Shown here one piece after another: positions 2 to 64,000 of a stretch of DNA of 64,000 nucleotides; positions within the stretch are counted from its first letter, which is position 1, and each line of letters begins with the position of its first letter. Source of the DNA: Janibacter sp. HTCC2649 (GTDB lineage Bacteria > Actinomycetota > Actinomycetes > Actinomycetales > Dermatophilaceae). The notes beneath the pieces were generated by a model. The model searched no databases. It saw only the letters and a list, made by a program, of their open reading frames with translations, and was not told the DNA's origin. The stretch lies in the NCBI RefSeq assembly GCF_000152705.1, contig NZ_CH672413.1, forward strand, positions 2,980,139 through 3,044,138, read 5' to 3'. The position numbers and the translations under genes were made by a program.

Positions 2-238
2 CTGGCGACCGAGTGGGGTGGCCCCGTCACGGTCGCGTATGCCGCGGGCACCCAGCCGTCCGTGCCCGACGCCGTCGCATCCGCTCGAGCTGCCGGCGCC
101 TCCACGGTCGCGATCGCGTCCTACCTGTTGGCCGAGGGCTTCTTCCACGACCGGCTGTCGGACGCCGGCGCCGACATCGTGACGCCACCCCTCGGGGACG
201 ACGACGCGGTGGTCGCCGTCATCCTCAGTCGTTGGTGA
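2..238 (+). CDS. Sirohydrochlorin chelatase-like protein (CbiX family), C-terminal part
   Basis: This is the last 78 residues of a gene that begins before the window. The visible part reads LATEWGGPVTVAYAAGTQ, then a VAIASYLLAEGFFHDRL stretch and a GADIVTPPLG stretch. These are typical of the C-terminal half of CbiX-type sirohydrochlorin cobalto- or ferrochelatases, which insert a metal into sirohydrochlorin for siroheme or cobalamin synthesis. The histidine in FFHDRL is a plausible metal ligand. The stop overlaps the convergent GNAT gene by 14 bp. The start and the N-terminal catalytic half are not visible, so the choice between iron and cobalt is open. Confidence 0.75.
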   Translation: MATEWGGPVTVAYAAGTQPSVPDAVASARAAGASTVAIASYLLAEGFFHDRLSDAGADIVTPPLGDDDAVVAVILSRW

Positions 239-1313
239 TGTCGCGGTGCCAGGACTCGGTCTTGTATGCCGTGACCCACCCGAGCGAGACATAGAGGCCA
301 TCCGCTCCGGTGGGGGAGTCGTCGTCGACCTCGAGCCCGACGCGGTTGTTGCCGCGCTCCGCCGCATCACGAATCACCGTGTGCAGCAACGCCTTTGCAA
401 CACCCCGACCACGAGCCAGCCGGTGCACCCCGATGTAGTCGACGTAGGTGCCGAAAGCACCCGACGCATCCGGAGGAACGACGGTCGCCACGAGAGCCCC
501 GCCGGGCACCAGCTCTCCATCGACCTCGATCTCCGCGATCCACCAGTGGTCCCACCGGTGGCCCGGGTCCTCGCGCAGGCGCGACAGGAACTCGGGGAAG
601 GACTCGCGATAGCTGTTGAAGTGGTCGGTGAACGACTCCTCGAGCATGCGGTGCACGGTCTGGAGGTCGGCGGCAACCGGGAGGCCGGTGTCGTGCTTGG
701 CGACCTGGCGGATCGTCACACCCTCACGGACGGCGGGGAGGACGCCGTCCTCGGCCTCCTTCGGCGTCACGGGTCGTGACATCTGCAGCCAAGTGCGGGT
801 CTGGCGGTAGCCAGCGGCCGCGAGCCATCGCCGCTGGCGCTGGTCGTCGGCATACGCACCGGAGTCGAGTTGGGTGCCGGGCAGCTCACGACCGGAGGCG
901 ATGACGCGTCCGGCTTCCTCAGCCCACGTGAACAACGCCGCCGCGAGGGCGTCCGCGTCACTGTCAGCAATGCCCTCGACGGCCACCGTCACCTCGACGA
1001 GGGTGCGGCCACCTGCCCGGTCGTGGGTCGTTGCCCAACCGAGGACCGACCCCTCGGCGTCGGTCACCAACGACTGGTGGCGGGTCCAGGACCCCTTGCC
1101 GGCGACGTTGCTCTCGATGACATCGGTGTCGACCGAACCCGAGCCCTTGGCCATCTGCTGATGCGCCTCGGACAACGACACCAGGGCGTCCACGTCCTCA
1201 CGGGTGGGAACGCGCACGACCCAGCCGGACGGCATACCCGACAGGTCCGGCAGGCCAGATTGGGCCGGCGGAATCTCTGTCTCGGACAACGGATCTGGCG
1301 TCGGTGACGTCAT
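225..1313 (-). CDS. Tandem-GNAT N-acetyltransferase (MshD-like architecture)
   Basis: The protein has 362 residues, long enough for two GNAT domains. The N-terminal half (about 30-185) is degenerate. The C-terminal half (about 205-355) carries [15 protein letters not shown] near residue 293, the acetyl-CoA pyrophosphate-binding motif, followed by an N-R-x-GLEVD strand and a GLYVSLGW ending typical of GNATs. This layout matches mycothiol synthase MshD, but many actinobacterial paralogues share it, so the substrate is unknown. The ATG at 1313 overlaps the stop of the HAD phosphatase (ATGA), which makes the two genes a translationally coupled pair. Confidence 0.8.
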
Positions 1314-2168: not shown

Positions 2169-3587
2169 ATGGCGCAACGTGACGACAACCAAGACCGGGC
2201 ACACCGCAGCGAGTCCGACACGATGGGCTCCATCGACGTTCCCGCTGACGCCTATTGGGGTGCGCAGACGCAGCGCAGCATCGAGAACTTCGACATCGGG
2301 CGCGACACGTTCGTGTGGGGCCGGCCGATGATCCGGGCGCTGGGCATCCTCAAGAAGGCTGCGGCACAGGCCAATGGCGAGCTGGCCGAGCTGCCGAGCG
2401 ATGTCGCCGACCTCATCGTGCGCGCTGCGGACGACGTCATCTCGGGTTCGCTCGACGCGCAGTTCCCCCTCGTCGTCTTCCAGACCGGGTCCGGCACGCA
2501 GTCCAACATGAACGCCAACGAGGTCGTGTCCAACCGCGCCATCGAGCTCGCCGGTGGGGTGCGCGGCTCCAAGACGCCCGTCCACCCCAACGACCACGTC
2601 AACCGCGGCCAGTCGAGCAATGACACCTTCCCGACGGCCATGCACATCGCCGTCGTCCTCGAGGTCGTCGAACGTCTGGAGCCCGCCGTCGCGGAGCTGC
2701 GCGGCGTCCTCGACGCCAAGGCCACGGCATACAAGGACGTCGTCATGGTCGGCCGCACGCACCTCCAGGACGCCACCCCCGTGACGCTCGGACAGGTCTT
2801 CGGTGGCTGGGTCGCGCAGATCGACGAAGCCATGAAGGCTCTGGGGTATGCCGTGGAGTCGGCTCGCGCTCTGGCCATCGGTGGCACTGCAGTCGGGACG
2901 GGGCTCAACGCCCACCCGAGGTTCGGTGCGCTGGCGGCGGAGAAGATCGCGGCGGAGACGGGTCAGGCGTTCCGGCAGGCGCCGGATCTCTTTGCCGCGC
3001 TGTCTGCCCACGATGCGCTGGTGGGAGTCAGCGCCGGGCTGCGGACCCTTGGCGGTGTCCTCATGAAGGTCGCCAACGACGTCCGCTGGTATGCGTCCGG
3101 CCCGCGAAATGGCTTGGGGGAGCTGCGGATTCCCGAGAACGAGCCCGGGTCGTCGATCATGCCGGGCAAGGTCAACCCGACCCAGGCGGAGGCGCTGACG
3201 ATGGTGGCGACGCGAGTCTTCGGCAATGACGCGACGGTCGCGTTCGCCGGGTCGCAGGGCAACTTCCAGCTCAATGTCTACAAGCCGGTCATGGCGCACG
3301 CCGTGCTCGAGTCCATCCGGCTGCTGGCCGACGGGTGCCGGTCGTTCACCGCGCACTGCGCCCGCGGCATTGAGCCCAACACGGAGCGGATCGAGGCCAA
3401 CCTCGCGAGCAACCTCATGCTCGTCACGGCGCTCAACCGGCACATCGGCTATGACAAGGCCGCGGCGATCGCGAAGCACGCGCACCGTGAGGGTCTGTCG
3501 CTGCGCGACGCGGCCCTGGCCTCGGGTGACGTGACGGGAGAGCAGTTCGACGAGTGGGTCGTCCCCGAGGACATGACCCACAACTGA
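2169..3587 (+). CDS. fumC: Fumarate hydratase, class II
   Basis: The protein has 472 residues and catalyses reversible hydration of fumarate to L-malate in the TCA cycle. It begins with [20 protein letters not shown], standard for class II fumarases. The superfamily signature [13 protein letters not shown] lies near residues 325-337, and the [13 protein letters not shown] substrate-binding block near residue 111. The first ATG has a GGAG only three bases upstream. A later in-frame ATG at 2223 would remove an 18-residue hydrophilic leader, so the start is slightly uncertain. The gene is monocistronic and faces the two LuxR-type genes. Confidence 0.95.
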
Positions 3588-4569: not shown

Positions 4570-4584
4570 GCGTTGACACCCTCC

Positions 4585-5861: not shown

Positions 5862-7679
5862 ATGGACTTCACCGCACCTTCACCCCATGGCGGCATGGGC
5901 GCCACACCGGTCGACGACGGTGTGACCTTCCGCGTCTGGGCGCCCCATGCCCAGCACGTGTGGGTCATCGGCGACTTCAACGGGTGGGACAGCGGCAACA
6001 ACCCGCAGTTCGAGCGTGACGGCGACGGCGCCCCTGGCATGTGGTCCGTGCACGTCCCCGGGGTGCGGGCCGGGCAGGAGTACCAGTTCCAGGTCGACAC
6101 GGGCTCCGAGGTCGTGTGGCGGGCCGACCCGTATGCCCGCCAGATGACGAACTCCGTGGGCAACTGCGTTGTCTACGAACCGAATTCGTTCGACTGGGGT
6201 GACAACGGATTCCGTATGCCGTCCTGGGACGACGTGGTCATCTACGAGATGCACGTGGGCACGTTCGGGAGGGACAAGGGCGCGCGCGGGAGCTTCGAGT
6301 CGGCGATTGCCGGGCTCGACCACTTGCGTGACCTCGGCGTCTCGGTGATCCAGGTGATGCCGCCGTTCGAGTACGCCGGCGACATCTCGTGGGGCTACAA
6401 CCCCAGCCACCTGTTCGCCGTCGAGTCGACCTATGGCGGTCCGGACGCGTTCAAGCGATTCATCAAGGCGGCTCACGAGCACGGCATGGCCGTGATCGTC
6501 GACGTCGTGCACAACCACATCGGACCCTCTGACCTCGACCTGTGGCGCTTCGACGGCTGGTCCGAGGGTGATGGCGGAGGCATCTACTTCTACAACGACT
6601 GGCGCGCGGCGACGCCGTGGGGCGCCACCCGTCCCGACTACGGTCGGCTGGAGGTGCGCAGCTACCTGCGCGACAGCGCCCTGCTCTGGCTCGAGGAATT
6701 CCGTTGCGATGGGCTGCGATTCGACGCAACCAACTACATTCGCTCGGTCACGGGCGGGACGTGGGACGGGGGAGCTGCCATCCCCGACGGCGCCGACTAC
6801 CTGTCGTGGCTCACGTCCGAGATCACGGCGCGCCAGCCGTGGAAGCTCCTCATCGCCGAGGACCTCCAGAACGACCCGGCGGTCACGACCATGAGCGGGC
6901 AGGGTGGCCTCGGCTTCCACGCCCAGTGGGACGCCGGCTTCGTCCACCCCGTCCGCAAGGCCCTCACCGAGCTCAGTGACGAGAACCGGGACGTGGAGTC
7001 GGTGGCCAGCGCCGTGCTCGGCGAAGGGCGTGGCCCGGCCGGGACCCGCGTCATCTACACGGAGTCGCACGACGAGGTGGCCAACGGCAAGACCCGTCTG
7101 CCCGAAGCCGTGGCCCCCGGCGACGCCGACTCCTGGGCCGCCAAGAAGCGGGCTGCCCTCGGCTTCGTCACCGTCATGTTCGCGCCGGGTCTGCCGATGC
7201 TCTTCCAGGGGCAGGAGTTCCTCGAGGACCGGTGGTTCGACGACTCGGTGCAGCTCGACTGGGGCAAGTCCGAGTCGAACGCCGGGATCGTGGCCCTGCA
7301 CCGCGACCTGATCCGGTTGCGCCGCAACGCCGATGGCGTGAGCCACGGTCTTCGTGGCGCGGGTATCAACGCGCTTCGCATCGACAACTCGGCCAAGATC
7401 CTCGCGTTCCACCGGTGGGCCGAGGGGGGAGTGCATGACGACACCGTCGTCGTCCTCAACTACTCGACCCAGGTGCTGGGTGAGCTGCCCGTCGGTCTGC
7501 CAGCGCCGGGCCTCTGGAAGGTGCGGTTCAACTCCGACTCGTCGGTCTACGCGCCGGACTTCGCCGGCACTGATGCCTTCGACGTCGAGGCGAGCGGCCC
7601 GGCCCTGGACGGTTGCGAGCAGAGCGCAGTCCTCGCCCTCGGCCCCTACAGCGCGGTCGTCCTCACCCGGGAGACCTGA
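5862..7679 (+). CDS. GH13 alpha-glucan enzyme (GlgB/TreZ-like)
   Basis: The protein has 605 residues. An N-terminal CBM48-type beta-sandwich (VTFRVWAPHAQHVWVIGDFN) is followed by the GH13 barrel. Region I is DVVHNH near 212, region II GLRFDATN near 283-290 with the nucleophile Asp, region III LIAEDLQN with the acid/base Glu near 332, and region IV YTESHDE near 400. A C-terminal beta domain ends the protein. The order suits branching enzyme or maltooligosyltrehalose trehalohydrolase, and I cannot separate them. ATG 5862 (MDFTAPSP) is preferred over an upstream GTG at 5829, which would add an arginine-rich leader. It stands alone, closed by a palindromic repeat. Confidence 0.82.
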   Translation: MDFTAPSPHGGMGATPVDDGVTFRVWAPHAQHVWVIGDFNGWDSGNNPQFERDGDGAPGMWSVHVPGVRAGQEYQFQVDTGSEVVWRADPYARQMTNSVGNCVVYEPNSFDWGDNGFRMPSWDDVVIYEMHVGTFGRDKGARGSFESAIAGLDHLRDLGVSVIQVMPPFEYAGDISWGYNPSHLFAVESTYGGPDAFKRFIKAAHEHGMAVIVDVVHNHIGPSDLDLWRFDGWSEGDGGGIYFYNDWRAATPWGATRPDYGRLEVRSYLRDSALLWLEEFRCDGLRFDATNYIRSVTGGTWDGGAAIPDGADYLSWLTSEITARQPWKLLIAEDLQNDPAVTTMSGQGGLGFHAQWDAGFVHPVRKALTELSDENRDVESVASAVLGEGRGPAGTRVIYTESHDEVANGKTRLPEAVAPGDADSWAAKKRAALGFVTVMFAPGLPMLFQGQEFLEDRWFDDSVQLDWGKSESNAGIVALHRDLIRLRRNADGVSHGLRGAGINALRIDNSAKILAFHRWAEGGVHDDTVVVLNYSTQVLGELPVGLPAPGLWKVRFNSDSSVYAPDFAGTDAFDVEASGPALDGCEQSAVLALGPYSAVVLTRET

Positions 7680-7804: not shown

Positions 7805-9175
7805 TCAGGCGGTGACGTAGGTGTCTGCGACGTTCAACGCGGCGTCGAGCTTCTCGAGGCCTTCACGCATCTCCGCAGCCGTCGTCGTGCACGGCGGCGC
7901 GACGTGGGTGCGGTTGAAGTGGATGAAGGGCCACAGGCCGTTCTTCTTGCACTCGGCGGCGAACGCGCCCATGGGAGCGGCAGCCGCGCCGGATGCATTG
8001 AACGGGACCAGCGGCTCGCGGGTCTCGCGGGAGCGGACGAGCTCCACGGCATACATGAATCCGACTCCGCGGACGTCGCCGACGGACGGGTGCCGCTCGG
8101 CGATCGCCTCGAGACCGGGCCGCAGGACGGTCTCCTCGACGCCGCGGACGTGCTCGAGGATGCCTTCCTCCTTGAAGATCCCGATGGAGGCGACGGCCGA
8201 GGCGCACGCGAGCGGGTGCCCCGAGTAGGTCAGCCCGCCCGGGTAGGCGCGGTCGGCGAACGTCGCCGCGATCGCCGCCGAGATGACGACGCCGCCCAGC
8301 GGCACATAGCCCGAGTTCACGCCCTTCGCGAAGCAGATGAGGTCCGGAGTGACGCCCCAGCGGTCGATGGCGAACCATTCGCCGCACCGCCCGAACCCGG
8401 CCATGACCTCGTCGGCGATGAAGACGATGCCGTTCTCGTCGCAGATCTCGCGCACGCCGGCGAGGTAGCGGTCCGGCGGCACGAGGACGCCGTTGGTGCC
8501 CACGACCGTCTCGAGCATGATCGCGGCGATCGTCGACGCGCCCTCGACCATGACCGTGTCCCGCAGGTGCTGCAGGGCGCGCTCGCACTCCTGCGCCTCC
8601 GAGGTCGCGTGGAACGCCGAGCGATAGAGGTAGGGACCCCAGAAGTGCACGATCCCCGGCACCGACGGCTCCGACGCCCAACGGCGCGGCTCGCCCGTCG
8701 CGGCGATCGCGCCCGCCGTCGCCCCGTGATAGCTGCGATAGGTCGTCAGGACCTTCTGGCGGCCGGTGTGCAGGCGCGCCATGCGCATCGCGTTCTCGGT
8801 CGCCTCGGCGCCACCGTTGGTGAAGAACACCGAGTCGAGGTCCCCGGGCGCGAGTTCGGCGATGAGTCGCGCGGCCTCGGACCGGGCGTCGTTCGCGAAG
8901 GCCGGCGAGACAGTGAGCAGCTTCCCGGCCTGTTCCTGGATGGCGGCGACGAGCTTCGGGTGCTGGTAGCCGATGTTGACGTTGACGAGCTGGCTCGAGA
9001 AGTCGAGGTACTTCGAGCCGTCGGCCGTCCAGAAGTGCGACCCGAGCGCCTTGGTCACCTCGGCGGGCGAGATCTGGGCCTGTGCCGACCACGAATGGAA
9101 GACGTGCGCGCGGTCAGCGTCGGTGGTCGAGGTCGTCTGGTGGGTCGGGTTCGTCGTCGTCACCCTCGGCAGCAT
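7805..9175 (-). CDS. Class III PLP-dependent aminotransferase
   Basis: The protein has 456 residues. FTNGGAEATENAMRMAR (about 118-134) binds the cofactor phosphate, and IVFIADEVMAGFGRCGEWFA carries the Asp that contacts the pyridine nitrogen. The Schiff-base lysine is in CFAKGVNSGYVPLGGV. This is the omega-amino acid:pyruvate or 2-oxoglutarate aminotransferase fold (beta-alanine, taurine or GABA type). The substrate is not determined. A GTG 12 bases downstream of the ATG is an alternative start. A TTGAAC-CCT-GTTCAA dyad lies upstream at 9212. It stands alone, so no pathway context helps. Confidence 0.88.
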   Translation of the reverse strand: MLPRVTTTNPTHQTTSTTDADRAHVFHSWSAQAQISPAEVTKALGSHFWTADGSKYLDFSSQLVNVNIGYQHPKLVAAIQEQAGKLLTVSPAFANDARSEAARLIAELAPGDLDSVFFTNGGAEATENAMRMARLHTGRQKVLTTYRSYHGATAGAIAATGEPRRWASEPSVPGIVHFWGPYLYRSAFHATSEAQECERALQHLRDTVMVEGASTIAAIMLETVVGTNGVLVPPDRYLAGVREICDENGIVFIADEVMAGFGRCGEWFAIDRWGVTPDLICFAKGVNSGYVPLGGVVISAAIAATFADRAYPGGLTYSGHPLACASAVASIGIFKEEGILEHVRGVEETVLRPGLEAIAERHPSVGDVRGVGFMYAVELVRSRETREPLVPFNASGAAAAPMGAFAAECKKNGLWPFIHFNRTHVAPPCTTTAAEMREGLEKLDAALNVADTYVTA

Positions 9176-9861: not shown

Positions 9862-10797
9862 GTGCCTTCGCCACCGCCGTTCGTCGCCCTCGGGGACTCG
9901 TATGCCGCGGGCGTCGGCGGTGGGGCCAAGCGCAACGAGTGCTGGCGCGCGGTTGAGGGATATCCCGTTCTCGTCGCCCGGACGCTCGGTCTCCACCTCG
10001 CCTACCAGGCGTGCCTCGGCGCGACCATCGACAACGTCGAGCGCGACCAGGCGCAGGCTCTCGGCCCCGAGACGACGCACGTCTCACTGACCGTCGGCGG
10101 CAACGACATCGGGTTCGTCCCCGTCCTCATCGAGTGCGCCAAGCCGTCCTGGGTGTCCGACTCGGACCCGGTCATCGACGATGCGCTCGCGATCCTGCGA
10201 ACCCAGCTGCCGGAGCGTCTCGCGGGGCTTCTGGCGACGATCGGGGAACGTGCGCCGAATGCGGAACTGGTCGTCACGGCATACCCCGTGTTGTTCAACG
10301 GCGAGGACTGCAACGCCCTGACGTTCTTCAGCCCTCACGAGATGGGGCGCATCAAGGATGGCGTGGACGAGCTGGCCGGCGTCATCGGCGCGGCGACGCA
10401 CGACGCGGGCGCTGACTTCGTCGACCCGCGCGGTCCCTTTACCGGGCACGCGATCTGCGACGACCCGGAGTGGCTCAACGGCGCGTCCCTGCCGCTGGAG
10501 CAGTCCTTCCACCCGAACGCGGACGGTCATGCGGCCTATGCGCGGCTCGTCACCACGGCATTCGATGCGGAGAGTGCCGACCTTCGGCCCGAGCGCGATG
10601 TGCGCGTCGTCGAGGGCCCGGCGCGTCGTGGAGACGCCCCGACGTTCCGCCTTCCCGACCTGTTGTCACCTCAGAGCCTCGACGGCGCCCGACGGCACGG
10701 GCTTGATCCGAGCCGGGTCGAGGCGCTGGTGCGCGAGGGGCGGCACGACGTCCTCCACGACCTCGATCGTGAACTGCGTCTGGCTCTGGGGAAGTGA
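9862..10797 (+). CDS. SGNH/GDSL-family hydrolase
   Basis: The protein has about 311 residues. FVALGDSYAAGVGG contains the nucleophile Ser13. TVGGNDIGF (block III Asn, about 78-86) and HPNADGH (catalytic His near 217) complete the SGNH set. The family includes esterases and lipases. There is no signal peptide, so it is probably cytoplasmic. The last 75 residues after the domain are a charged tail without known fold. GTG 9862 is used; an upstream TTG at 9850 adds only four residues. It is convergent with the 56-aa gene, with a hairpin between. Confidence 0.85.
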   Translation: MPSPPPFVALGDSYAAGVGGGAKRNECWRAVEGYPVLVARTLGLHLAYQACLGATIDNVERDQAQALGPETTHVSLTVGGNDIGFVPVLIECAKPSWVSDSDPVIDDALAILRTQLPERLAGLLATIGERAPNAELVVTAYPVLFNGEDCNALTFFSPHEMGRIKDGVDELAGVIGAATHDAGADFVDPRGPFTGHAICDDPEWLNGASLPLEQSFHPNADGHAAYARLVTTAFDAESADLRPERDVRVVEGPARRGDAPTFRLPDLLSPQSLDGARRHGLDPSRVEALVREGRHDVLHDLDRELRLALGK

Positions 10798-15111: not shown

Positions 15112-15147
15112 GGCACCCAACCTACGCCGCGGCATACGCTCCCGTTC

Positions 15148-51912: not shown

Positions 51913-52034
51913 CTTCGCAGCGTATGCCGGTGAGTCGCCCCGGGCGCCCGTCTTGCCCTCTCGTGGGGTCACCGTAAGGGTCTCGTCATCTGCAGGCGGC
52001 TCGGGGCGGGGGCGGTGAGCCCTAGCGTCGGACC

Positions 52035-52712: not shown

Positions 52713-54013
52713 CCGCGACGACGGCCCTCGATCCCACGTGTCGCGACCTGCACACCGTGATCATCCTGGCCAAGTCCCCGCAGCCCGGTCGGGTCAAGAC
52801 CCGGCTCACTCCCGACTTCTCACCCAGTGAGGCCGCAGCACTCGCGGCGGCAGCGATCCGCGACACCCTCGCTGCAGCGCGGGCCACCGGCGCGCGGACG
52901 GTCCTGGCCTGGGACGGCCCGCCGACGCGCTGGCTGCCCGAGGACGTCCCCGTCCATCCCCAACGAGGCAACGGCCTCGACGAGCGCCTGGACCACGCCT
53001 TCCGGGACGCGCTCGCGGACCACGGCGATCGGCCCACTCTCCTCGTCGGCATGGACACCCCCCAGGTCGGATCCGAGGAGCTGCTCGCGGACTGGCACGG
53101 TGCCGACGCCGTGCTCGGGCTCTGTGAGGACGGCGGCTACTGGGCGATCGGGTTGCGTCGATACCAACCAGGACTGTTCGTCGGGGTCCCGATGTCCACG
53201 GCGCACACGGGTGCTGCACAGCTCGAACGCCTTCTCTCTGAGGGCCTTTCGGTGCACCTGCTGCCGATGCAGCGTGACGTGGATGAACCCGCCGACGCGG
53301 CAGCCGCAGCAGCGCGCGCTCCGGGGACCCGGTTTGCCAAGACCTTCAGGCGCCTCGTGGCCACCCCCTGTGACCCCACCCTGATGTTCGACATCGCGCT
53401 CACGCGAGGAGGGGTCCACCTCGAATGGGGGGTCCCGGTGGACGGGCGGCCCGCTCCCCGTCAGCTGCTCGATGTGGGGGCGTGGCTGACGATGTCGGGT
53501 GTCGATGAACTCATCGTCAGCCGCTGCTCCGGCCCCGTCATCGACATCGGCTGCGGTCCGGGCAGGTTCGTCGAGGCGTTGTCTGCCCGCGGCCTCCCCG
53601 CGCTGGGCATCGACGTGTCGGGTGCCTCCATCGTCCAGACCCGAGCCCGCGGCGGGAATGCCCTGCTGCGCGATGTCTTCAAGCCCATTCCCGGCGAAGG
53701 GCGTTGGCAGACGCTGCTCCTCGCCGACGGCAACGTCGGCATCGGTGGGGATCCCCTCCTCCTCCTGCACCGGTGCAGCCAGCTGCTCAGCCCCGAAGGT
53801 TGGGCCCTCGTGGAGGTGGACCCCGACGACGGCGTCGATCTGCGCACCGAGGTGACCCTGACCGGACCGTGGGGCCGACGGTCGCTCCCGATCCCGTGGG
53901 CCCGAGTGGGAGCCACGGCCCTTCTCCGGTATGCCGCCCAGGCCGGCCTGCTTGCCGTCGAGGACTGGCGCGTTGACGGGCGCGCATTCGTCACCCTCCG
54001 CCAGGCGGCCTGA
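52709..54013 (+). CDS. Fusion of DUF2064 glycosyltransferase-like domain and SAM methyltransferase
   Basis: The protein has 434 residues. Residues 1-205 are a DUF2064/TIGR04282-type GT-A-like domain (VIILAKSPQPGRVKTRL, LLVGMDTPQVGSEEL, ALRRYQ-like GLRRYQPGLFVGVP). After a 35-residue linker, residues about 255-434 form a class I methyltransferase with PVIDIGCGPGRFVEALSARG and LGIDVSGASIVQTRA. No stop separates the parts, and the reading frame is continuous. DUF2064 proteins sit in arsenosugar and other glycan clusters. A hairpin closes the gene. ATGA overlap with the GT2. Confidence 0.87.
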   Translation: MTATTALDPTCRDLHTVIILAKSPQPGRVKTRLTPDFSPSEAAALAAAAIRDTLAAARATGARTVLAWDGPPTRWLPEDVPVHPQRGNGLDERLDHAFRDALADHGDRPTLLVGMDTPQVGSEELLADWHGADAVLGLCEDGGYWAIGLRRYQPGLFVGVPMSTAHTGAAQLERLLSEGLSVHLLPMQRDVDEPADAAAAAARAPGTRFAKTFRRLVATPCDPTLMFDIALTRGGVHLEWGVPVDGRPAPRQLLDVGAWLTMSGVDELIVSRCSGPVIDIGCGPGRFVEALSARGLPALGIDVSGASIVQTRARGGNALLRDVFKPIPGEGRWQTLLLADGNVGIGGDPLLLLHRCSQLLSPEGWALVEVDPDDGVDLRTEVTLTGPWGRRSLPIPWARVGATALLRYAAQAGLLAVEDWRVDGRAFVTLRQAA

Positions 54014-54075: not shown

Positions 54076-54414
54076 TCAGGTGCGTAGTCCGCCGGTGGCG
54101 AGGAGGGGTACGGCGATGATCACGAGGGTGAGCACGGCCAAACCGAGGACTCTCACGACGGGACGTGCCCGCTCCGGAGCACGACGGGCAACCAGCCACC
54201 CGGTGACCACACCGAGGGGCGCCAGGACCCCGTCGTGGACGGCGATGCCGGCACCGATCCAGAGGCCGACCCGCAGCCACCCACTCGTGGGCACGTGGGC
54301 GAGGAACTGCCACACCCCCACGGCGAGGAAGACGAGCCCTGCCGCACCGAGCAGGAGGCGAGTCGGCCCGATCTCGCGGGCCCCGGCATACAGGGTCGTC
54401 CTGATGGTCTTCAT
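54076..54414 (-). CDS. Small membrane protein of the glyco/redox cluster
   Basis: The protein has 112 residues, with three hydrophobic stretches: LLLGAAGLVFLAVGVWQFLA, RVGLWIGAGIAVHDGVLAPL and LAVLTLVIIAVPLLA. No conserved motif is recognised. ATG 54414 overlaps the stop of the molybdopterin fusion gene (ATGA), so it is co-translated with it. It may be a membrane partner or assembly factor for that enzyme. Confidence 0.72.
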   Translation of the reverse strand: MKTIRTTLYAGAREIGPTRLLLGAAGLVFLAVGVWQFLAHVPTSGWLRVGLWIGAGIAVHDGVLAPLGVVTGWLVARRAPERARPVVRVLGLAVLTLVIIAVPLLATGGLRT

Positions 54415-55559
54415 GAACGCACCTCCAGGTCGGTGACCCATTTGGTCTGCAGGACGCCCGGACGGTTCGGCGCGATGAGACGCACCGGGAACCCGTGATC
54501 CCGGGTGAGCCGAGAACCGTTGAGCCGCAGGGCAAGCAGCGTGCTCGGGTGGTCTGCGTAGGCGCGGGGAAGCAGGCTCTCGCGATAGGTGCCGCTGGCC
54601 TCGGCCGAGCGGACCGCGACATCGCCGCCGACGCCGCCCACGAGGTCCAGCACGTCGCGCAACCGCACGCCCTGCCACGTGGCGTCCGCGCTCCAACCCT
54701 CGACGCAGGCGATCGGGAGGGACACGGTCCGCTGGGGCAGGGCGCGCAGCTCGGCGGCGGTGACGACGCGTTCGCCGGTGGTTCCCCTGACGGACAGCTG
54801 CCAACTGTCGTCGCCTGTCGCCGGATCGAGGTCCGGACTGATGCGTGCCTGGGCAGCCGTTCTGTTGACCGGGACACCCAGCGGGCTGTTGCGGGGCCGT
54901 CGGGACCGAAGCACCGAGACCTTGTCCAGAGCAGGGATGGTCGACCCGACCGTGAGGACCACCGCCCCGGTGGCCACGGCAAGCGCGCCGAGGATGAAGC
55001 CACGCCGGCCATTGCTCTTGGACCGGGCCACGCCGGCAGGGGTGAGTGCGTCGCGGATGGCTGGCAGCTTCACGGCGATGTGGACCGCCAGTGCCCCGAT
55101 GGCCACCCACGCGAACGCCCAGTGGACCTTGGTGAAACCGAAGCCGAAGACGTACCAACCGGCGACGTTGGCGATGCCCGTCGAGACCATCATCAGCGAC
55201 GATCCGACGAGGACGGCGATGGACGCGCGCTCGAGCATCTGCACCGGTGAACCGACGACAGGGCGCGTGAACAAACGCGGGTACGCGGCATACAGCTTGG
55301 CCAGAAGGAGGGGGACGGACGCAGTGCCCGACGCCACGTGCAGGCCCTGGGTGACGCGATAACCCCACGCCGGACCGGTGGGGATCGGCAGCCACGAGAT
55401 GGGGTACTGGTGGAGGTGGCTGAGGATTCCGGTGAGGAAGCAGATGGTGAACGCGACGCCGAGGAGGGCACCCATGCGGGCCACCACGGTGCGGTCATGC
55501 ACCGGCGACGTGAAGTCCTCGGGTGTCGGCGGCGCCGGTGGAGCGGGCAGTTTGCGCAT
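54411..55559 (-). CDS. Cytochrome-b-like membrane domain fused to a sulfite-oxidase-type molybdopterin domain
   Basis: The protein has 382 residues. Residues about 30-165 form four membrane helices with His in the SHLHQY, GLHVAS, KVHWAF and AVHIAV positions, consistent with b-haem ligands. A fifth helix (GFILGALAVATGAVVLTVGS) leads to the SUOX-type domain, with WQLSVRGTTGERVVTAAELR, Mo-ligand Cys near 284 in LPIACVEGWSADATW, and RLIAPNRPGVLQTKW. MsrP/MsrQ split the same functions over two proteins. The domain would face the outside. It is divergent from the GT87-like gene. Confidence 0.85.
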   Translation of the reverse strand: MRKLPAPPAPPTPEDFTSPVHDRTVVARMGALLGVAFTICFLTGILSHLHQYPISWLPIPTGPAWGYRVTQGLHVASGTASVPLLLAKLYAAYPRLFTRPVVGSPVQMLERASIAVLVGSSLMMVSTGIANVAGWYVFGFGFTKVHWAFAWVAIGALAVHIAVKLPAIRDALTPAGVARSKSNGRRGFILGALAVATGAVVLTVGSTIPALDKVSVLRSRRPRNSPLGVPVNRTAAQARISPDLDPATGDDSWQLSVRGTTGERVVTAAELRALPQRTVSLPIACVEGWSADATWQGVRLRDVLDLVGGVGGDVAVRSAEASGTYRESLLPRAYADHPSTLLALRLNGSRLTRDHGFPVRLIAPNRPGVLQTKWVTDLEVRS

Positions 55560-55681: not shown

Positions 55682-57121
55682 ATGCGCAGAATCCTCATCG
55701 GCACGGCGATCATGGCCGCCTGCTCCGCGGGCTTTGCGCTGTCCGGCGACCTCGACACCAACCGGGTGCGGCTGGCCGTGGTGATGGTCGTCTGGTGGGT
55801 GATCGCCGTCGCCACGATCCGTTGGGTGGTGGGCCGGCGCGGGACAGACAGCGCGGCGTCACTGGCTGACGGCTCGGTGCGGCGCACGGCCTTGTTGGTC
55901 TTCGTCGTGGCGCTCGTCGTGCAGCTCCCGGGGCTGTTGACGTCCCCGCGGTCGAGCTCCGACGCCTACCGGTATGTCTGGGACGGGCGGGTCCAGCTGA
56001 GCGGCACCTCGCCCTATCGCTACGCGCCACTCGATGACCGGCTCGCCGACCTGCGCGACCCGGTCCTCTTTCCCGGACTCGGGTCGGGCGATCGCTCGGG
56101 CTACGTGACTCAACCCCTCCCGACCGATCGCTCCGGAGTGCGGGACCGAGCCACGAACGACCCGCGCACCGTCATCAACCGCCCGCAGGTTCCGACGATC
56201 TATCCACCCGTGGCGCAGGCGTGGTTCACCGCGGTGGCCGCCGTGACACCGTGGTCCTGGGGCACCCGTGGCCTGCAGGCTGGGTCGGCGATGCTCGCGG
56301 CCGGTGTGGCGGCTGCCCTCGCGGCGCTGCTTCGACGGCGCGGGAGCGATCCCGGTCGGGCTCTCTGGTGGGCATGGTGCCCGGCCGTGGTGGCCGAAGC
56401 GGGCAACGGGGCACACGTCGACGTCCTCGCTGCGGCGTTCGTCGTGGTGGCACTGGCGGTCGTGTCACCGGCCGTGGGAGGTGCTCGTCGGGGGCGTGGC
56501 GCGGCCGTCCTGGCCGGGGTTATGACCGGTCTGGCAACGCTCGTGAAGCTCTATCCGGCAGTGGTGCTGAGTTCGCTCTTCTCATTGCGCCACAACGCCG
56601 CTCGCGCCCTGGCCGCGGTGGCGGCAGCGGTTCTCACCGTGCTGTTGGCCTATCTGCCGCACTGGCTCGCCGCGGGTGACCTTGTCCTCGGCTATCTCCC
56701 GGCCTACGTCGTCGAGGAGTCCGGGGCGAACCGGTCGGGCATCGTCCAGCTCCTCGTCCCGGACGCCGCTGTGACTCCGGTGACCATCCTGCTGCTCGCG
56801 GTCGTGGCCGGCGCCGTCGCCTGGAGCCGGGTGCGCGATCCGGCGTTGGGGGCCACGCTCATCCTCGGCTCGCTGCTCCTCCTCACGACACCGAGCTATC
56901 CGTGGTACGCCCTGCCGATGCTCGCCTGCGCGGTGCTCGCCGGCCGGCTCGAGTGGCTCGCCGTGGCCCTCGCGGCCGTGCTCGCCTACGCGTCGGCGTC
57001 GGTGCCACCCGTGCCGACGATGGCGTATGCCGTGTCGGCCGCGTTCGTGCTGGCGGCCGGTTGGCGTCGTGCTCCCTTCACCGCAGGGTTGGTGACGCGG
57101 TTCAGCCGGCGCTTCGGGTGA
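55682..57121 (+). CDS. GT87-like polyprenol-dependent mannosyltransferase
   Basis: The protein has 479 residues and at least 10 membrane helices. SSDAYRYVWDGRVQLSGTSP, then PYRYAPLDDRL, is the conserved acidic loop of GT87 (DUF2029/PimE-like) GT-C enzymes. IYPPVAQAWFTAVAAVTPWS and TPSYPWYALPMLACAVLAG are further markers. These enzymes transfer mannose from polyprenyl phosphate on the outside of the membrane. ATG 55682 begins the signal-anchor helix; ATG 55616 is possible. It overlaps the ABC-F gene by 20 bases. Confidence 0.85.
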   Translation: MRRILIGTAIMAACSAGFALSGDLDTNRVRLAVVMVVWWVIAVATIRWVVGRRGTDSAASLADGSVRRTALLVFVVALVVQLPGLLTSPRSSSDAYRYVWDGRVQLSGTSPYRYAPLDDRLADLRDPVLFPGLGSGDRSGYVTQPLPTDRSGVRDRATNDPRTVINRPQVPTIYPPVAQAWFTAVAAVTPWSWGTRGLQAGSAMLAAGVAAALAALLRRRGSDPGRALWWAWCPAVVAEAGNGAHVDVLAAAFVVVALAVVSPAVGGARRGRGAAVLAGVMTGLATLVKLYPAVVLSSLFSLRHNAARALAAVAAAVLTVLLAYLPHWLAAGDLVLGYLPAYVVEESGANRSGIVQLLVPDAAVTPVTILLLAVVAGAVAWSRVRDPALGATLILGSLLLLTTPSYPWYALPMLACAVLAGRLEWLAVALAAVLAYASASVPPVPTMAYAVSAAFVLAAGWRRAPFTAGLVTRFSRRFG

Positions 57122-58751
57122 CCTGTCCGGCGTCGACGTGCCAGCGCTGGTCGAGGTGGACGTTCTCGAGGAGTCGGCGGTCGTGTGAGACGAGCAGCAG
57201 AGCGCCCTCATAGGTGTCGAGGGCCTCTTCGAGCTGCTCGATGGCTGGCAGGTCGAGGTGGTTGGTCGGCTCGTCGAGGACGAGGAGGTTGACGCCGCGA
57301 GCCTGGAGCAGCGCCATGGCAGCGCGCGTGCGCTCACCCGGAGACAGCCGTGAGATCAGGCTCGTCACCTGGTCGGCGCGCAACCCGAACTTGGCGAGCA
57401 GGGTGCGGCGCTCGGCCGGTTCGAGGTCGGGCACGGCCTCGCCGAACGCGTCGGCGAGCGACAGGTCCTCGCGCAGACCGCTGCGGGCCTGGTCGATCTC
57501 ACCGATGGCGACGCTGGCACCGAGGCTGGAGCTGCCGCTGTCAGGTGCGAGTCGGCCGAGGAGGACGTTGAGGAGGGTGGTCTTGCCGGCACCGTTGGGT
57601 CCAGTGATGCCGATGCGGGTGCGGGCGTCGACCTGGAGTGAGACCGGGCCGAGGGTGAAGTCGCCGCGGCTGAGGGTCGCCTCATTGAGGGTGGCCACGA
57701 CCGAGCTCGACCGGGGTGCCTCGCCGATCGTGAACTGCAGGACCCATTCCTTGCGTGGCTCCTCGACCTCTTCGAGTCGCGAGATGCGTGACTCCATCTG
57801 GCGCACCTTGCGGGCCTGCTTCTCGGAGGAGTCGATGCTCGCGGCCCGACGGATCTTGTCGTTGTCGGGGCTCTTCTTCATCGCGTTGCGGACGCCCTTG
57901 CTGCTCCACTCGCGCTGGGTGCGCGCTCGCGACTCGAGGTCGGCCTTCGTCCCGGCGAACTCCTCATACGCCTCGCGCACGTGCCGTCGGGCGATCTCGC
58001 GCTCCTCGAGGAAGGAGTCGTAGCCGCCGTCGTGGACCGAGACCTGGTTCTGGGCGAGGTCGAGCTCGACGATGCGGGTGACACAGCGGGCCAGGAACTC
58101 GCGGTCGTGCGAGACGAGGACGACTCCTCCGCGCAGCCCGGTGACGAAGGCCTCCAGGCGAGCCAACCCGGCGAGGTCGAGGTCGTTGGTCGGCTCGTCG
58201 AGCAGGACGATGTCGAACCGGCTGAGGAGCAAGGCAGCCAACGCGGCTCGCGCGGCCTGGCCACCCGAGAGCGAGGTCATCAGGGCGTCGCGGGCGACGT
58301 CGAGCCCCAGCTCGGCGAGCATCGCGGGGATGCGGTCCTCGAGATCAGCGGCACCGGAGGCCAACCACCGATCGAGAGACACGGCATACGCGTCGTCTGC
58401 GTTTTGGTCGTCGCTGCCGAGGGCGGCCGCGGCCGCCTCCATCGCCTCGGTCGCGGCCGTGGCTCCGGTGCGGCGGGCGATGTAGTCGGTGACCGTCTCG
58501 TCCGGAAGGCGCTCGTGCTCCTGTGGCAACCAGCCCACGAACGCGTCGGACGGGGCGGTCGTGACGGTGCCGTCGAGGGGCGCGGACTCGCCGGCGAGCA
58601 GTCGCAGCAGCGTCGTTTTGCCCGCACCGTTGGCACCGACGACCCCGACGACGTCGCCGGGCGCGACCGTCAGGTCGAGGTGCTCGAAGAGGGTGCGGTG
58701 GGCGTGCCCTCCGGACAGGTCCTTCGCCACGAGGGTTGCACTCACGAGCAC
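57102..58751 (-). CDS. ABC-F family ATPase
   Basis: The protein has 549 residues with two ABC domains and no membrane helices. Walker A motifs are GANGAGKTT and GPNGAGKTT, signatures LSGGQAARAALA and LSPGERTRAAMA, and Walker B LLDEPTNDLDLAG and LDEPTNHLDLPA. The linker holds a charged arm (SKGVRNAMKKSPDNDKIRRA). ABC-F proteins act on ribosomes, as translation factors or antibiotic-resistance proteins. The GTG at 58751 or 58745 starts it. It is on the opposite strand to its neighbour, probably single. Confidence 0.92.
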   Translation of the reverse strand: MLVSATLVAKDLSGGHAHRTLFEHLDLTVAPGDVVGVVGANGAGKTTLLRLLAGESAPLDGTVTTAPSDAFVGWLPQEHERLPDETVTDYIARRTGATAATEAMEAAAAALGSDDQNADDAYAVSLDRWLASGAADLEDRIPAMLAELGLDVARDALMTSLSGGQAARAALAALLLSRFDIVLLDEPTNDLDLAGLARLEAFVTGLRGGVVLVSHDREFLARCVTRIVELDLAQNQVSVHDGGYDSFLEEREIARRHVREAYEEFAGTKADLESRARTQREWSSKGVRNAMKKSPDNDKIRRAASIDSSEKQARKVRQMESRISRLEEVEEPRKEWVLQFTIGEAPRSSSVVATLNEATLSRGDFTLGPVSLQVDARTRIGITGPNGAGKTTLLNVLLGRLAPDSGSSSLGASVAIGEIDQARSGLREDLSLADAFGEAVPDLEPAERRTLLAKFGLRADQVTSLISRLSPGERTRAAMALLQARGVNLLVLDEPTNHLDLPAIEQLEEALDTYEGALLLVSHDRRLLENVHLDQRWHVDAGQVTRSAG

Positions 58752-58754
58752 AGA

Positions 58755-62057: not shown

Positions 62058-63107
62058 TCATTCGTCCCAGGTGATGACGGCCTTGCCGGACGCACCGGCG
62101 TCAGCCACGGCATACGCGTCCTGGGCGTCAGCCAGCGCGAAGCGGTGGGTGACGATCCGCTCGGGATGCTCACCCCAGCGCGACAGCAGGTCGAGCAGCT
62201 CGGCCATGTGACCGAGCGACGTCACCCACGACCCGTGCAACGACACCTGCTTGTGGATCAACAGGTCGGAGACGGCGAAGTCGATCTGTCCACCTTCGCC
62301 CACCATGACGCAGTTCCCGCGCGCGGCAGTGTGGGTGAGGGCAGCGACCCGGGCCCGGGCGTTGCCGCTGCAGTCGATCGTGACCTCGCACCCGCGTCCG
62401 TCGGTGGCGTCGCCCACGGCATCGGCAAGCTCGGCGGGGTCGGTGACGATGATGTCGACGAGGCCGAGCTCGCGAGCGAGGGCGGCGCGCCCGGCGTGGG
62501 GTTCGAGGCCGATGACGGTGGCGGCGCCGAGGTGGCGCCCGAGCATCGCGGCGGCGAGGCCCACCGGGCCGAGGCCCGTGACCAGCAGCCGGTCACGTCC
62601 GCTGACGCCACCTCTCAACAAGCCTTCGTATGCCGTTCCGAACCCACACGAGACCAGCGCACCATCGACATGGGTCACGCCTTCGGGCAGGCGCAGGCAG
62701 GACACGGCCTCGGCGACCATGAACTCCGCATGCCCACCGTCGCGCTGCCAGCCGTGCGCAGCGCGCGTCGGTGCGGTGCAGCCGATGGGGTAGCCGATCC
62801 GGCATTCGGCGCAGGACCCGCACCCGGTGATGTGATAGACCGCGACGCCTTCGCCGACCTCGAGGGTCGTCACCCCGGGGCCGAGTTCGACGACGTCGCC
62901 GCAGGGCTCGTGGCCCGCGATCACGCCCTGGTACGCCTCGGCTCCGTGGCCAAGGTGCTCGCGGTAGATCGCCCGAATGTCGCTGCCACAGATACCCGAA
63001 GCGCGCATCCGCAGCAGCACCTGCCCCGGCCCGGGCGTCGGAACATCGACGGTCACATGCTCCACGGTGCTGTCACCCGGCAGCCGCACGGCCTTCATCG
63101 TCGCCAT
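62058..63107 (-). CDS. Zinc-dependent alcohol (polyol) dehydrogenase
   Basis: The protein has 349 residues. Catalytic zinc ligands appear in GICGSDIRAIYRE and AGHEPCGDVVELG, and the structural zinc Cys cluster in GCGSCAECRIGYPIGC. VTGLGPVGLAAAMLGRHLGA is the NAD motif. It is a medium-chain dehydrogenase of the sorbitol/threonine group. It begins where the next gene ends (TGATG, one-base overlap), and its stop abuts the stop of the WXG-like protein. It may feed xylulose to the nearby XylB. Confidence 0.88.
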   Translation of the reverse strand: MATMKAVRLPGDSTVEHVTVDVPTPGPGQVLLRMRASGICGSDIRAIYREHLGHGAEAYQGVIAGHEPCGDVVELGPGVTTLEVGEGVAVYHITGCGSCAECRIGYPIGCTAPTRAAHGWQRDGGHAEFMVAEAVSCLRLPEGVTHVDGALVSCGFGTAYEGLLRGGVSGRDRLLVTGLGPVGLAAAMLGRHLGAATVIGLEPHAGRAALARELGLVDIIVTDPAELADAVGDATDGRGCEVTIDCSGNARARVAALTHTAARGNCVMVGEGGQIDFAVSDLLIHKQVSLHGSWVTSLGHMAELLDLLSRWGEHPERIVTHRFALADAQDAYAVADAGASGKAVITWDE

Positions 63108-64000
63108 CAGGGGGCGCGGTCAGGACTGGGCACTGGATGGATGATCGACTTGATGGCCTTGGGGTCGGTGCGAGCGGCGGTGAGGGCGCCCTCCGTGCCC
63201 TCGAGGTCGAAGTGGCCGGTCGCCAGCGGTGTGAGGTTCACGCGACCTGATGCCACGAGGTCGATCGCGGTCGGCCAGGTGTTGGCGTACCGGAAGACTC
63301 CGGTCACCCACAGTTCGCGGTTCTGCACGTCACCCAGCGGCAGGGCCAACGTGTCGCCACCCATGCCGATGAGCACGACTCGTCCTGCCGGTGCCGCCAC
63401 GCGGATCGCGGCCTGCGTCGAACCCTCGTGTCCCGAGCACTCGAGGACGACATCGGGACCTGGGCGGCCGGCATACGCATCGGCCAGGGACTTCGACGAG
63501 ACGTCCACCGTCTTGGTCGCCCCCAGCGAGGAGGCCACAGACAACCGGTGCGCGTTGACGTCAGCCACGACGACTTCTGAAGCACCGAAGGCAACAGCGA
63601 CCTGCGCGGCCAGCTGACCCACTGGGCCGGCGCCGGTCACGAGGACCCGCACCCCCGGCGCGACACCAGCGCGCCGACAGGCCCAGATCCCGACCGACAG
63701 GGGCTCGAGCATGGCGCCCTCGTCGAGCGACACCGAGTCGGGCAGGGCGAAGGCGAACGACGACGGGTGCACGACGTACTCCGCGAGTGTCCCGTCGATC
63801 GGCGGCGTCGCGTGGAAGACCATGTCGGGGCAGAGGTTGTAGTGACCGGCGAGGCACTGGGCGCACGAGCGACAGGGCACCCCCGGCTCGATCGCGACCC
63901 GCTCACCGATGCGCGCCGGGTCCACGCCCGACCCGACACCCACGATGACGCCGGCGCTCTCGTGCCCCAGCACCATCGGGCCGGTGACGATGTGCTCGCC
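63107..64000 (-). CDS. Zinc-dependent sorbitol/iditol-type dehydrogenase, N-terminus missing
   Basis: The 3' part of a gene that continues past the right edge. Visible residues begin EHIVTGPMVLGHESAGVIVG. PCRSCAQCLAGHYNLC is the structural zinc site, and LVTGAGPVGQLAAQVAVAFG the NAD motif; AFALPDSVSLDEGAMLEPLS is diagnostic for sorbitol/L-iditol dehydrogenases, with the Glu ligand. It oxidises polyols to ketoses. Coupled to the following dehydrogenase (TGATG) and near XylB, it suggests a polyol-to-xylulose 5-phosphate pathway. No start is visible. Confidence 0.9.
   Translation of the reverse strand, partial: GEHIVTGPMVLGHESAGVIVGVGSGVDPARIGERVAIEPGVPCRSCAQCLAGHYNLCPDMVFHATPPIDGTLAEYVVHPSSFAFALPDSVSLDEGAMLEPLSVGIWACRRAGVAPGVRVLVTGAGPVGQLAAQVAVAFGASEVVVADVNAHRLSVASSLGATKTVDVSSKSLADAYAGRPGPDVVLECSGHEGSTQAAIRVAAPAGRVVLIGMGGDTLALPLGDVQNRELWVTGVFRYANTWPTAIDLVASGRVNLTPLATGHFDLEGTEGALTAARTDPKAIKSIIHPVPSPDRAP

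What the first reader, a model, noticed from the sequence alone, without database searches (positions are those of the whole stretch)
37..63480. Octamer GTATGCCG/CGGCATAC is strongly over-represented across the whole window
Seen in sequence: I count more than 50 copies by eye, about 28 in each orientation, for example at 37, 2848, 13483, 29025, 49671 (plus) and 848, 8049, 30746, 49859, 62106 (minus). A rough composition estimate would give only a few. In genes the motif falls in different frames: TAT-GCC (Tyr-Ala), GGT-ATG-CCG (Gly-Met-Pro) and GTA-TGC-CGT (Val-Cys-Arg). It is therefore not a codon-pair effect but a DNA-level signal. Candidate roles: a methylase or restriction site that is kept, a nucleoid-protein or chromosome-organising site, a Chi-like or uptake-like motif.
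Basis: partly seen in the sequence, partly recalled or inferred. Interest (0 to 1): 0.75.

Follow-up and report, generated by a model that had tools for sequence, protein, structure and literature searches.

The report
Genome-wide DNA tag with dialects
One eight-letter DNA word is sprinkled thousands of times through this soil bacterium and many of its relatives, laid out like the self-recognition tags that some bacteria use when they take up DNA, and two related genera carry a different word laid out in much the same way.

Summary
The window has 28 + 28 copies of GTATGCCG/CGGCATAC against 2.2 expected; the genome (genus Knoellia) has 2,982 against 59 for the reversed word. In its family 107 of 186 genomes are word-rich by my cut; 273 genomes of other families of the order are not. 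Janibacter (16 of 16) and a second genus (3 of 3) are poor in GTATGCCG and carry 797-1,939 copies of CGAAGGGGG per genome, a word near background in the other 167. Both words share a layout: same-orientation copies avoid each other below about 1 kb, opposite copies are nearly independent, and in host and Janibacter convergent pairs form hairpins. A conjugative-element-like island is almost empty. A Tad minor-pilin-like protein has no match throughout 6 of 16 wordless genera and 0 of 28 word-bearing ones. Best explanation: a DNA uptake (self-recognition) sequence used with ComEA/ComEC and a Tad/Flp pilus, spread by uptake-driven recombination, with dialect replacement. It works like DUS/USS; kinship is not shown and uptake is untested. 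A Chi-like signal is the main rival. My searches of one open-paper library found no report.

The parts
37..44 (+). GTATGCCG copy
264..271 (+). GTATGCCG copy
848..855 (-). GTATGCCG copy
1230..1237 (-). GTATGCCG copy
2725..2732 (-). GTATGCCG copy
2846..2853 (+). GTATGCCG copy
6214..6221 (+). GTATGCCG copy
8047..8054 (-). GTATGCCG copy
9900..9907 (+). GTATGCCG copy
10277..10284 (-). GTATGCCG copy
13482..13489 (+). GTATGCCG copy
13876..13883 (-). GTATGCCG copy
15130..15137 (-). GTATGCCG copy
15661..15668 (+). GTATGCCG copy, left arm of a convergent dyad
15688..15695 (-). GTATGCCG copy, right arm of a convergent dyad
15661..15695 (.). convergent dyad in the gap between two convergent provisional genes; folds as a long hairpin (71-nt stretch -44.5 kcal/mol, z -6.9)
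16956..16963 (-). GTATGCCG copy
20671..20678 (-). GTATGCCG copy
20812..20819 (+). GTATGCCG copy
21966..21973 (-). GTATGCCG copy, divergent dyad inside a predicted NAD synthase gene
21976..21983 (+). GTATGCCG copy, divergent dyad inside a predicted NAD synthase gene
23652..23659 (+). GTATGCCG copy
24462..24469 (-). GTATGCCG copy
25007..25014 (+). GTATGCCG copy
26787..26794 (-). GTATGCCG copy
27136..27143 (+). GTATGCCG copy
29028..29035 (+). GTATGCCG copy
29147..29154 (-). GTATGCCG copy
30745..30752 (-). GTATGCCG copy
32578..32585 (+). GTATGCCG copy
32745..32752 (+). GTATGCCG copy
35050..35057 (+). GTATGCCG copy
35250..35257 (-). GTATGCCG copy
37378..37385 (-). GTATGCCG copy
37861..37868 (+). 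GTATGCCG copy
39626..39633 (-). GTATGCCG copy
41054..41061 (-). GTATGCCG copy
41142..41149 (+). GTATGCCG copy
41951..41958 (+). GTATGCCG copy
42409..42416 (+). GTATGCCG copy
43108..43115 (-). GTATGCCG copy
43547..43554 (+). GTATGCCG copy
46981..46988 (-). GTATGCCG copy
47767..47774 (+). GTATGCCG copy
48854..48861 (-). GTATGCCG copy
49566..49573 (+). GTATGCCG copy
49670..49677 (+). GTATGCCG copy
49859..49866 (-). GTATGCCG copy
51922..51929 (+). GTATGCCG copy
53929..53936 (+). GTATGCCG copy
54384..54391 (-). GTATGCCG copy
55286..55293 (-). GTATGCCG copy
57025..57032 (+). GTATGCCG copy
58382..58389 (-). GTATGCCG copy
62108..62115 (-). GTATGCCG copy
62628..62635 (+). GTATGCCG copy
63469..63476 (-). 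GTATGCCG copy

Best explanation
GTATGCCG is the DNA uptake (self-recognition) sequence of a naturally transformable actinobacterial lineage. A pilus-borne or surface receptor (not identified) favours fragments carrying the word. Uptake proceeds from the word with a fixed strand polarity through a Tad/Flp-type pilus, ComEA and ComEC, and recombination then replaces the resident sequence. Because tagged alleles are taken up preferentially, the word accumulates by molecular drive. A new copy gains little if another copy in the same orientation already serves the neighbourhood, hence the spacing of about 1 kb within each orientation. Newly acquired conjugative DNA starts untagged. If the receptor or pilus is lost, the word erodes, perhaps faster because its TAT codons are disfavoured in a GC-rich genome. 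If the receptor changes specificity, another word takes over, as CGAAGGGGG has in Janibacter and a second genus. Shown here: the over-representation, its limits within the order, the mixed states in the family, the second word, the spacing, the dyads, one near-empty island, comEA/comEC-like and Tad genes, and the link with a Tad minor-pilin-like protein. Inferred: that uptake depends on the word, the receptor, the polarity, the drive and the direction of change (loss rather than gain).
For: Excess: 2982 copies against 59; coding null 322 against 28.6. Limited to the family within the order: none of 273 genomes of other families has more than 177 copies or more than about 4x the reversed control, judged by eye; 107 of 186 family genomes are rich. 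Second word in 19 of 19 genomes of two genera, 797-1939 copies each, at most 80 in the other 167. Spacing: same-orientation pairs at 60-1250 bp are 0.56 of expectation and opposite pairs 1.12; label permutation 118 against 171 +/- 9, 0 of 2000 as low; repeated in a second genus, 91 against 129 +/- 8, 0 of 1000, and for the other word in Janibacter, 50 against 67 +/- 6, 1 of 1000. Dyads: +- pairs at 8-30 bp are 11x expected in the host, 29 of 34 close inverted pairs lie outside provisional genes, and one Janibacter genome has 14 convergent pairs within 60 bp. Island: 4 copies in 78 kb against 56 expected, with a TrwC relaxase, IS21 parts and a T2SSF protein. Conservation: 36 of 45 aligned sites kept in Knoellia against 30% for all 8-mers; 0 of 52 in word-poor genera. 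Machinery: a ComEA-like frame next to ComEC and a Tad-type locus. Minor-pilin-like protein without a match throughout 0 of 28 word-bearing genera and 6 of 16 wordless ones, Fisher P 0.001.
Against: I read no uptake or transformation result for this organism. In H. influenzae the orientation of the word had no significant effect on uptake in the analysis of PMC1939737 (passage), which speaks against a polar uptake step by analogy. No receptor was found; a tree of the minor-pilin-like protein does not unite the two word-B genera. comEC occurs in 180 of 186 genomes, word or no word, and 10 of 16 wordless genera keep the minor-pilin match in some or all members, so the machinery does not predict the word. 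The match is missing in 2 of 92 complete word-rich genomes (G073, G123) and only marginal in G074; in word-B G064, the genome used for the spacing test, it is marginal too (E 6e-4). The two words share no 3-mer on either strand, unlike published dialects, which keep a core. The dyad excess is not general: G164 has 0 convergent pairs at 9-30 bp, 1.3 expected. In the more distant word-rich genera sites are kept no more often than other 8-mers (5 of 31, background 17%). Orientation balance by 20-kb piece is beyond chance in the host (chi2 9.1 on 35), only suggestive in G164 (P 0.05) and absent in G064 (P 0.15). Seven of the 107 rich genomes exceed the reversed control only 2.5-4.7x, Arsenicicoccus among them. 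Genomes of a family are not independent, so the Fisher values overstate.
Confidence: 0.65

Rival explanations
1. Chi-like polar recombination signal: the word is read from one side by a helicase-nuclease (AdnAB, AddAB or RecBCD) during break repair. Each orientation serves breaks on one side, so each is spread evenly and independently.
For: It explains the orientation-specific spacing as well as uptake does. Scarcity in an acquired island fits too. Word B is G-rich, as known Chi sites are (recalled). RecC is present in 6 of 6 word-B genomes and 16 of 40 word-A genomes searched (P 0.008). Four neighbouring samples at 1.1-1.5 Mb lean to one strand, 18 against 33 (P 0.05 unadjusted, chosen after looking).
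Against: RecC (so RecBCD) is missing in the window's genome and the 3 other Knoellia searched, and shows no overall link with carrying a word (P 1.0). Intergenic hairpin dyads and an 11- to 26-fold excess are not known to me for Chi (recalled). Taken together the 35 pieces are more balanced than chance, whereas E. coli Chi is strongly skewed (recalled); origin and terminus were not located. The link with the Tad protein has no reason under this reading. AdnAB/AddAB was not tested.
Confidence: 0.16
2. Intracellular chromosome-organising or nucleoid-protein site.
For: Thousands of copies spread over the chromosome; each orientation is evenly spaced, CV 0.72 and 0.71.
Against: Evenness exists only within an orientation (CV 0.97 for all sites), which a packing site does not need. 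Relatives do without it or use an unrelated word.
Confidence: 0.07
3. Methylation or restriction site that is kept.
For: A sharp, mismatch-intolerant word.
Against: Modification sites are usually neutral or avoided rather than enriched 26-fold (recalled). Orientation-specific spacing, intergenic dyads and the link with a Tad protein have no reason under it. No methylase was searched for.
Confidence: 0.03
4. Transcription terminators or another RNA-level element.
For: 34 close inverted pairs in 704 kb, 29 of them outside provisional genes; the window dyad folds strongly.
Against: The pairs hold 68 of 506 copies; 364 of 506 copies lie inside provisional genes, on either strand. Probably a secondary use, as reported for DUS/USS (passages).
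Confidence: 0.03

Closest known systems
DUS of Neisseriaceae (GCCGTCTGAA and dialects; receptor ComP)
   Same: Thousands of copies of one short word; permissive intergenic regions favoured; inverted pairs linked to terminators; atypical DUS distribution in integrative conjugative elements; different dialects in different subclades (passages of PMC3630211, PMC6370729, PMC12616744; abstract of PMC7371117).
   Different: Different phylum and cell envelope (known, no call); no match to the type IVa platform protein PilM in 78 of 80 genomes, a Tad/Flp-type locus instead; the two words share no 3-mer while DUS dialects keep CTG; no proof of uptake; no receptor.
USS of Pasteurellaceae (AAGTGCGGT / ACAAGCGGT; receptor predicted to be a minor pilin)
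   Same: About one copy per kb in H. influenzae; reported even spacing; close inverted pairs as terminators (abstract and passages of PMC7811141, passages of PMC1939737 and PMC12616744).
   Different: As for DUS. Separate repulsion within each orientation is not described in the passages I read, and orientation did not affect uptake there. Karlin 1996 on even spacing is known to me only through a citing passage.
Flp/Tad-dependent transformation of Micrococcus luteus
   Same: An actinobacterium using comEA, comEC and a Tad/Flp pilus for natural transformation (passages of PMC6370729); the same gene types are in this genome.
   Different: The passages I read do not mention an uptake sequence for M. 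luteus; transformation of Knoellia is untested.
Chi sites (RecBCD/AddAB)
   Same: Short polar word, different in different species (recalled).
   Different: Host has no RecC match; strong hairpin dyads; link with a Tad protein.

Membership tests
DUS/USS-type uptake sequence (by function) | One short word over-represented by an order of magnitude or more, genome-wide | tested here: met
   2982 against 59 copies; 56 against 2.2 in the window
DUS/USS-type uptake sequence (by function) | Both orientations equally frequent | tested here: met
   1486 and 1496; 35 pieces of 20 kb more balanced as a set than chance, chi2 9.1
DUS/USS-type uptake sequence (by function) | No bias by replication strand | tested here: inconclusive
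   Sampled stretches show no strong skew, but origin and terminus were not located and one region leans 18 to 33
DUS/USS-type uptake sequence (by function) | Scarce in recently acquired mobile DNA | tested here: met
   One island only, chosen because the list showed a gap: 4 copies in 78 kb against 56 expected; TrwC relaxase, IS21
DUS/USS-type uptake sequence (by function) | Denser between genes, inverted pairs at gene ends | tested here: met
   142 copies in 118 kb noncoding against 364 in 586 kb coding; 29 of 34 close pairs outside provisional genes; no dyad excess in G164; terminator function untested
DUS/USS-type uptake sequence (by function) | Dialects that keep a common core | tested here: not met
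   Two mutually exclusive words with no common 3-mer on either strand
DUS/USS-type uptake sequence (by function) | The word raises DNA uptake or transformation | not testable with these tools
   Needs an uptake assay
DUS of Neisseriaceae / USS of Pasteurellaceae (by descent) | Type IVa pilus with ComP/ComN-type minor pilin receptor | tested here: not met
   PilM platform matched in 2 of 80 family genomes and not in the host; ComP/ComN themselves not searched
Flp/Tad-dependent competence as in M. luteus | comEA, comEC and a Tad/Flp locus present | tested here: met
   ComEA-like frame found by a recalled helix-hairpin-helix pattern next to ComEC, ComEC domains, Tad ATPase, two T2SSF, TadE and TadE/G-like
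Chi site for RecBCD | RecBCD present | tested here: not met
   RecC not found in the host; 22 of 46 word-bearing genomes searched have it (16 of 40 word A, 6 of 6 word B)
Chi site for AdnAB/AddAB | Helicase-nuclease of this type responds to the word | not tested
   No search made for adnAB/addAB

The most novel reading that the evidence does not exclude
An origin of uptake-sequence self-recognition separate from Neisseriaceae and Pasteurellaceae: an actinobacterial system with a Tad/Flp pilus, old enough to span a family, lost several times, and in two genera replaced outright by an unrelated word with the same orientation-specific spacing. That spacing would be a genomic footprint of polar, strand-specific uptake acting over about 1 kb.
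Probability: 0.53. Interest if true: 0.93.

Novelty: new variant of a known kind. Interest (0 to 1): 0.86.

Why it matters
A paper that I read in passages calls the uptake-sequence requirement of Neisseria and Pasteurellaceae unique (PMC3630211). A case in Actinobacteria with a different pilus would show that self-tagged DNA uptake evolved again, would suggest that many relatives are naturally transformable, would give a practical route to transform them (add the right word), and offers a set of related genomes with word A, word B or none in which to find the receptor and to test how an uptake word is lost or switched.

Tried and rejected
Codon-pair effect: rejected by the synonymous shuffle and noncoding density. 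Dispersed repeat or mobile element: flanks carry little information. Type IVa pilus link: PilM in 2 of 80 genomes. comEC as discriminator: present in 180 of 186. RecBCD/Chi: no overall association. Receptor by tree of the minor-pilin-like protein: word-B genera not united, weakly supported tree. Third word in two wordless genomes (140 and 120 kb sampled): nothing comparable at k 7-10 or as gapped 4+4 words, apart from clustered local repeats and words of few copies or lesser excess; other wordless genera were not sampled enough. Positive control with Neisseria DUS: the family reached through a Neisseriaceae-labelled MAG has no DUS (at most 3 copies per genome in 23 genomes), so the spacing test on a known uptake word was not done. 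Control octamers: 202 with at least 200 copies have a median same-orientation ratio of 1.16; the only one as low as the word is GGCATACC, which overlaps it; an earlier control set of 19 included the word itself and is not used.

Literature: the word itself occurs in 643 papers and its complement, with two other terms, in 140; the 20 and 15 listed looked unrelated. Searches found no paper; one review; three papers and 29 (15 listed), none on point by their listings. No bioRxiv is held, so prior report outside this library is not excluded.


Full report
WHAT IS THERE. The window holds exactly 28 + 28 copies of GTATGCCG/CGGCATAC; an order-3 Markov model expects 2.19. The genome has 1486 + 1496 in 4.235 Mb against 35 + 24 for the word read backwards. 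The word is sharp: one-mismatch versions are mostly near or below expectation and the flanks carry little information. In 488 provisional genes of sampled stretches there are 322 copies, against 28.6 +/- 4.9 after synonymous shuffling. In 704 kb outside the island, 142 copies lie in about 118 kb of noncoding and 364 in 586 kb of provisionally coding sequence, in all six strand-frame combinations; 165 of 634 TAT codons lie in the word. Genes are provisional, called by frame composition in my scripts.

WHOSE GENOME. A 472-aa protein of the window (a fumarase by look; label recalled) matches Knoellia locipacati and Knoellia sp. Soil729 at 94 and 93%. That g1 is Knoellia and g27 Janibacter follows from these; the family name Dermatophilaceae is recalled and comes from no call.

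WHERE ELSE. In 297 genomes drawn from the order, 24 belong to the window's family; the other 273 have at most 177 copies and at most about 4x the reversed control, by eye. Nothing beyond the order was searched. Within the family, 107 of 186 genomes have at least 130 copies per Mb (class A), 14 have 40-130, 65 fewer; these cuts are mine. Of the 107, 100 exceed the reversed control at least 5x; seven, in g4, g18, g26 and g52, only 2.5-4.7x. Neighbouring genomes differ: one poor genome in each of g4, g32 and g41, beside rich ones. A LeuRS tree of 20 genomes that I picked needs 6 changes of state, at least 5 by well-supported branches, and the state is not clustered on it (203 of 500 shuffles as low). 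The same octamer arising repeatedly from nothing seems implausible, so I read this as an old trait with repeated loss; regain by transfer of a receptor is not excluded.

A SECOND WORD. Scanning sampled stretches of a word-poor Janibacter genome showed CCCCCTTCG/CGAAGGGGG, 61 against 3.7 expected in 140 kb. Over the family it has 797 to 1939 copies in all 16 g27 and all 3 g35 genomes and at most 80 in the other 167. All 19 are poor in GTATGCCG. The words share no 3-mer on either strand. g27 and g35 do not group together in the LeuRS tree, though the branches concerned are not among its best supported. Two other wordless genomes (140 and 120 kb) showed no comparable third word.

SPACING. In 704 kb of the host, same-orientation pairs at 60-1250 bp are 0.56 of expectation, opposite pairs 1.12; permuting orientation labels gives 171 +/- 9 against 118 observed, 0 of 2000 as low. 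Depletion fades near 1.5 kb. Each orientation is evenly spaced (CV 0.72 and 0.71), the union is not (0.97), and 35 pieces of 20 kb are as a set more balanced than chance (chi2 9.1). G164, another genus, repeats the spacing (91 against 129 +/- 8, 0 of 1000) and so does word B in Janibacter G064 (50 against 67 +/- 6, 1 of 1000). The piece-balance test is only suggestive in G164 (P 0.05) and not significant in G064 (P 0.15). So the word seems to act with a direction, over roughly 1 kb, and two unrelated words follow the same rule. Origin and terminus were not located; four neighbouring samples at 1.1-1.5 Mb lean 18 to 33.

DYADS. Convergent pairs 8-30 bp apart are 11x expected in the host and divergent ones 4x. 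Of 34 close inverted pairs, 29 lie outside provisional genes. The window pair at 15661-15695 lies between convergent genes and folds at -44.5 kcal/mol (71 nt, z -6.9), the pair inside a gene at 21966-21983 less so (z -2.5). Janibacter G064 shows 14 convergent pairs of word B within 60 bp. G164 does not follow: no convergent pair at 9-30 bp, 1.3 expected. Published uptake words have the habit of inverted pairs (passages).

EVOLUTION AT SITES. In blast alignments, host sites are kept in Knoellia relatives in 36 of 45 cases (30% for all 8-mers), in g43 11 of 16 (16%), in g41 5 of 10 (14%), in more distant word-rich genera 5 of 31 (17%, so no excess), and in word-poor genera 0 of 52 (19%). Some sites are counted against several relatives.

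FOREIGN DNA. A gap in the list led me to four stretches between 150 and 233 kb: 4 copies in 78 kb, 56 expected (the choice was made after seeing the gap). Ten proteins from three of them include a TrwC relaxase, IS21 transposase parts, a T2SSF protein, an M23/NlpC enzyme and a heavy-metal ATPase: a conjugative-element-like island. Atypical DUS distribution has been used to find such elements in Neisseriaceae (abstract). No other island was examined.

MACHINERY. ComEA-like and ComEC frames are adjacent near the contig start; a locus with a T2SSE ATPase, two T2SSF, TadE, a further small pilin-like protein without Pfam match (minor pilin by position, my label) and a TadE/G-like protein lies at about 1.367-1.372 Mb. 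comEC is near universal (180 of 186), type IVa PilM nearly absent (2 of 80), T2SSF in 79 of 80; the 80 were picked by me. The small pilin-like protein, searched over 186 genomes, has no match in 2 of 92 word-A, 0 of 18 word-B and 11 of 41 wordless genomes at 90% completeness or more (1 of 12 in the middle class); counting marginal matches as absent, 3, 1 and 11 (P 0.0001). By genus it is missing throughout in 0 of 28 word-bearing and 6 of 16 wordless genera (P 0.001). Fewer than three T2SSF matches: 0 of 46 word-bearing, 6 of 27 wordless. Exceptions: G073 and G123 carry word A without a match; G074 (word A) and G064 (word B) have only a marginal one. RecC shows no overall link.

READING. The set fits an uptake sequence: excess, both strands, intergenic hairpins, poverty of an acquired island, mixed states between neighbours, switching, and a tie to the pilus locus. 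In H. influenzae only the 3'-leading strand enters intact (passage), which could make the two orientations separate services; that step is inference, and orientation did not affect uptake in the analysis of PMC1939737 (passage). A Chi-like role predicts the spacing too and cannot be excluded, but not the pilus link, and the host has no RecC match. By descent this is not shown to be DUS or USS: the type IVa platform is missing and the two words have no common core. I therefore say it works like them.

NOVELTY. Searches for the word, its complement, uptake sequences in Actinobacteria and for the family showed no report in the listings of this library of open papers; bioRxiv and most subscription papers are not held.

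Noticed in passing
genomes of g27 (Janibacter) and g35; loci L129-L135, L239-L258: A different 9-bp word, CGAAGGGGG, is present 797-1939 times per genome; in G064 it follows the same spacing rule, forms hairpin pairs, and is preceded mostly by G at -2 (180 of 241).
   Followed up: yes
own genome C1 about 150-233 kb; L082, L083, L084, L168: Conjugative-element-like island (TrwC relaxase, IS21, T2SSF, M23/NlpC enzyme, heavy-metal ATPase), nearly free of the word.
   Followed up: partly
window 15715-17031 (-): Predicted Endonuclease I with DUF6359 beside the word dyad at 15661-15695; a possible DNA-processing nuclease, not tested against word status.
   Followed up: no
window 3865-4569 and 4585-5289 (-): Two adjacent open frames of 234 aa with similar starts look like a tandem duplicate of unknown function.
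   Followed up: no
genomes G008 (g4), G083 (g32), G113 (g41): Single genomes without the word inside otherwise word-rich genera; material to find what was lost (G008 is only 89% complete).
   Followed up: no
L139, L140, L142 (G160): Small clusters of GTATCGGGT/ACCCGATAC, 3-4 copies at 10- and 52- to 62-bp steps, look like local repeats.
   Followed up: no
own genome contigs C2-C4 (L098-L100): The three contigs of about 1 kb that I took begin with runs of N.
   Followed up: no
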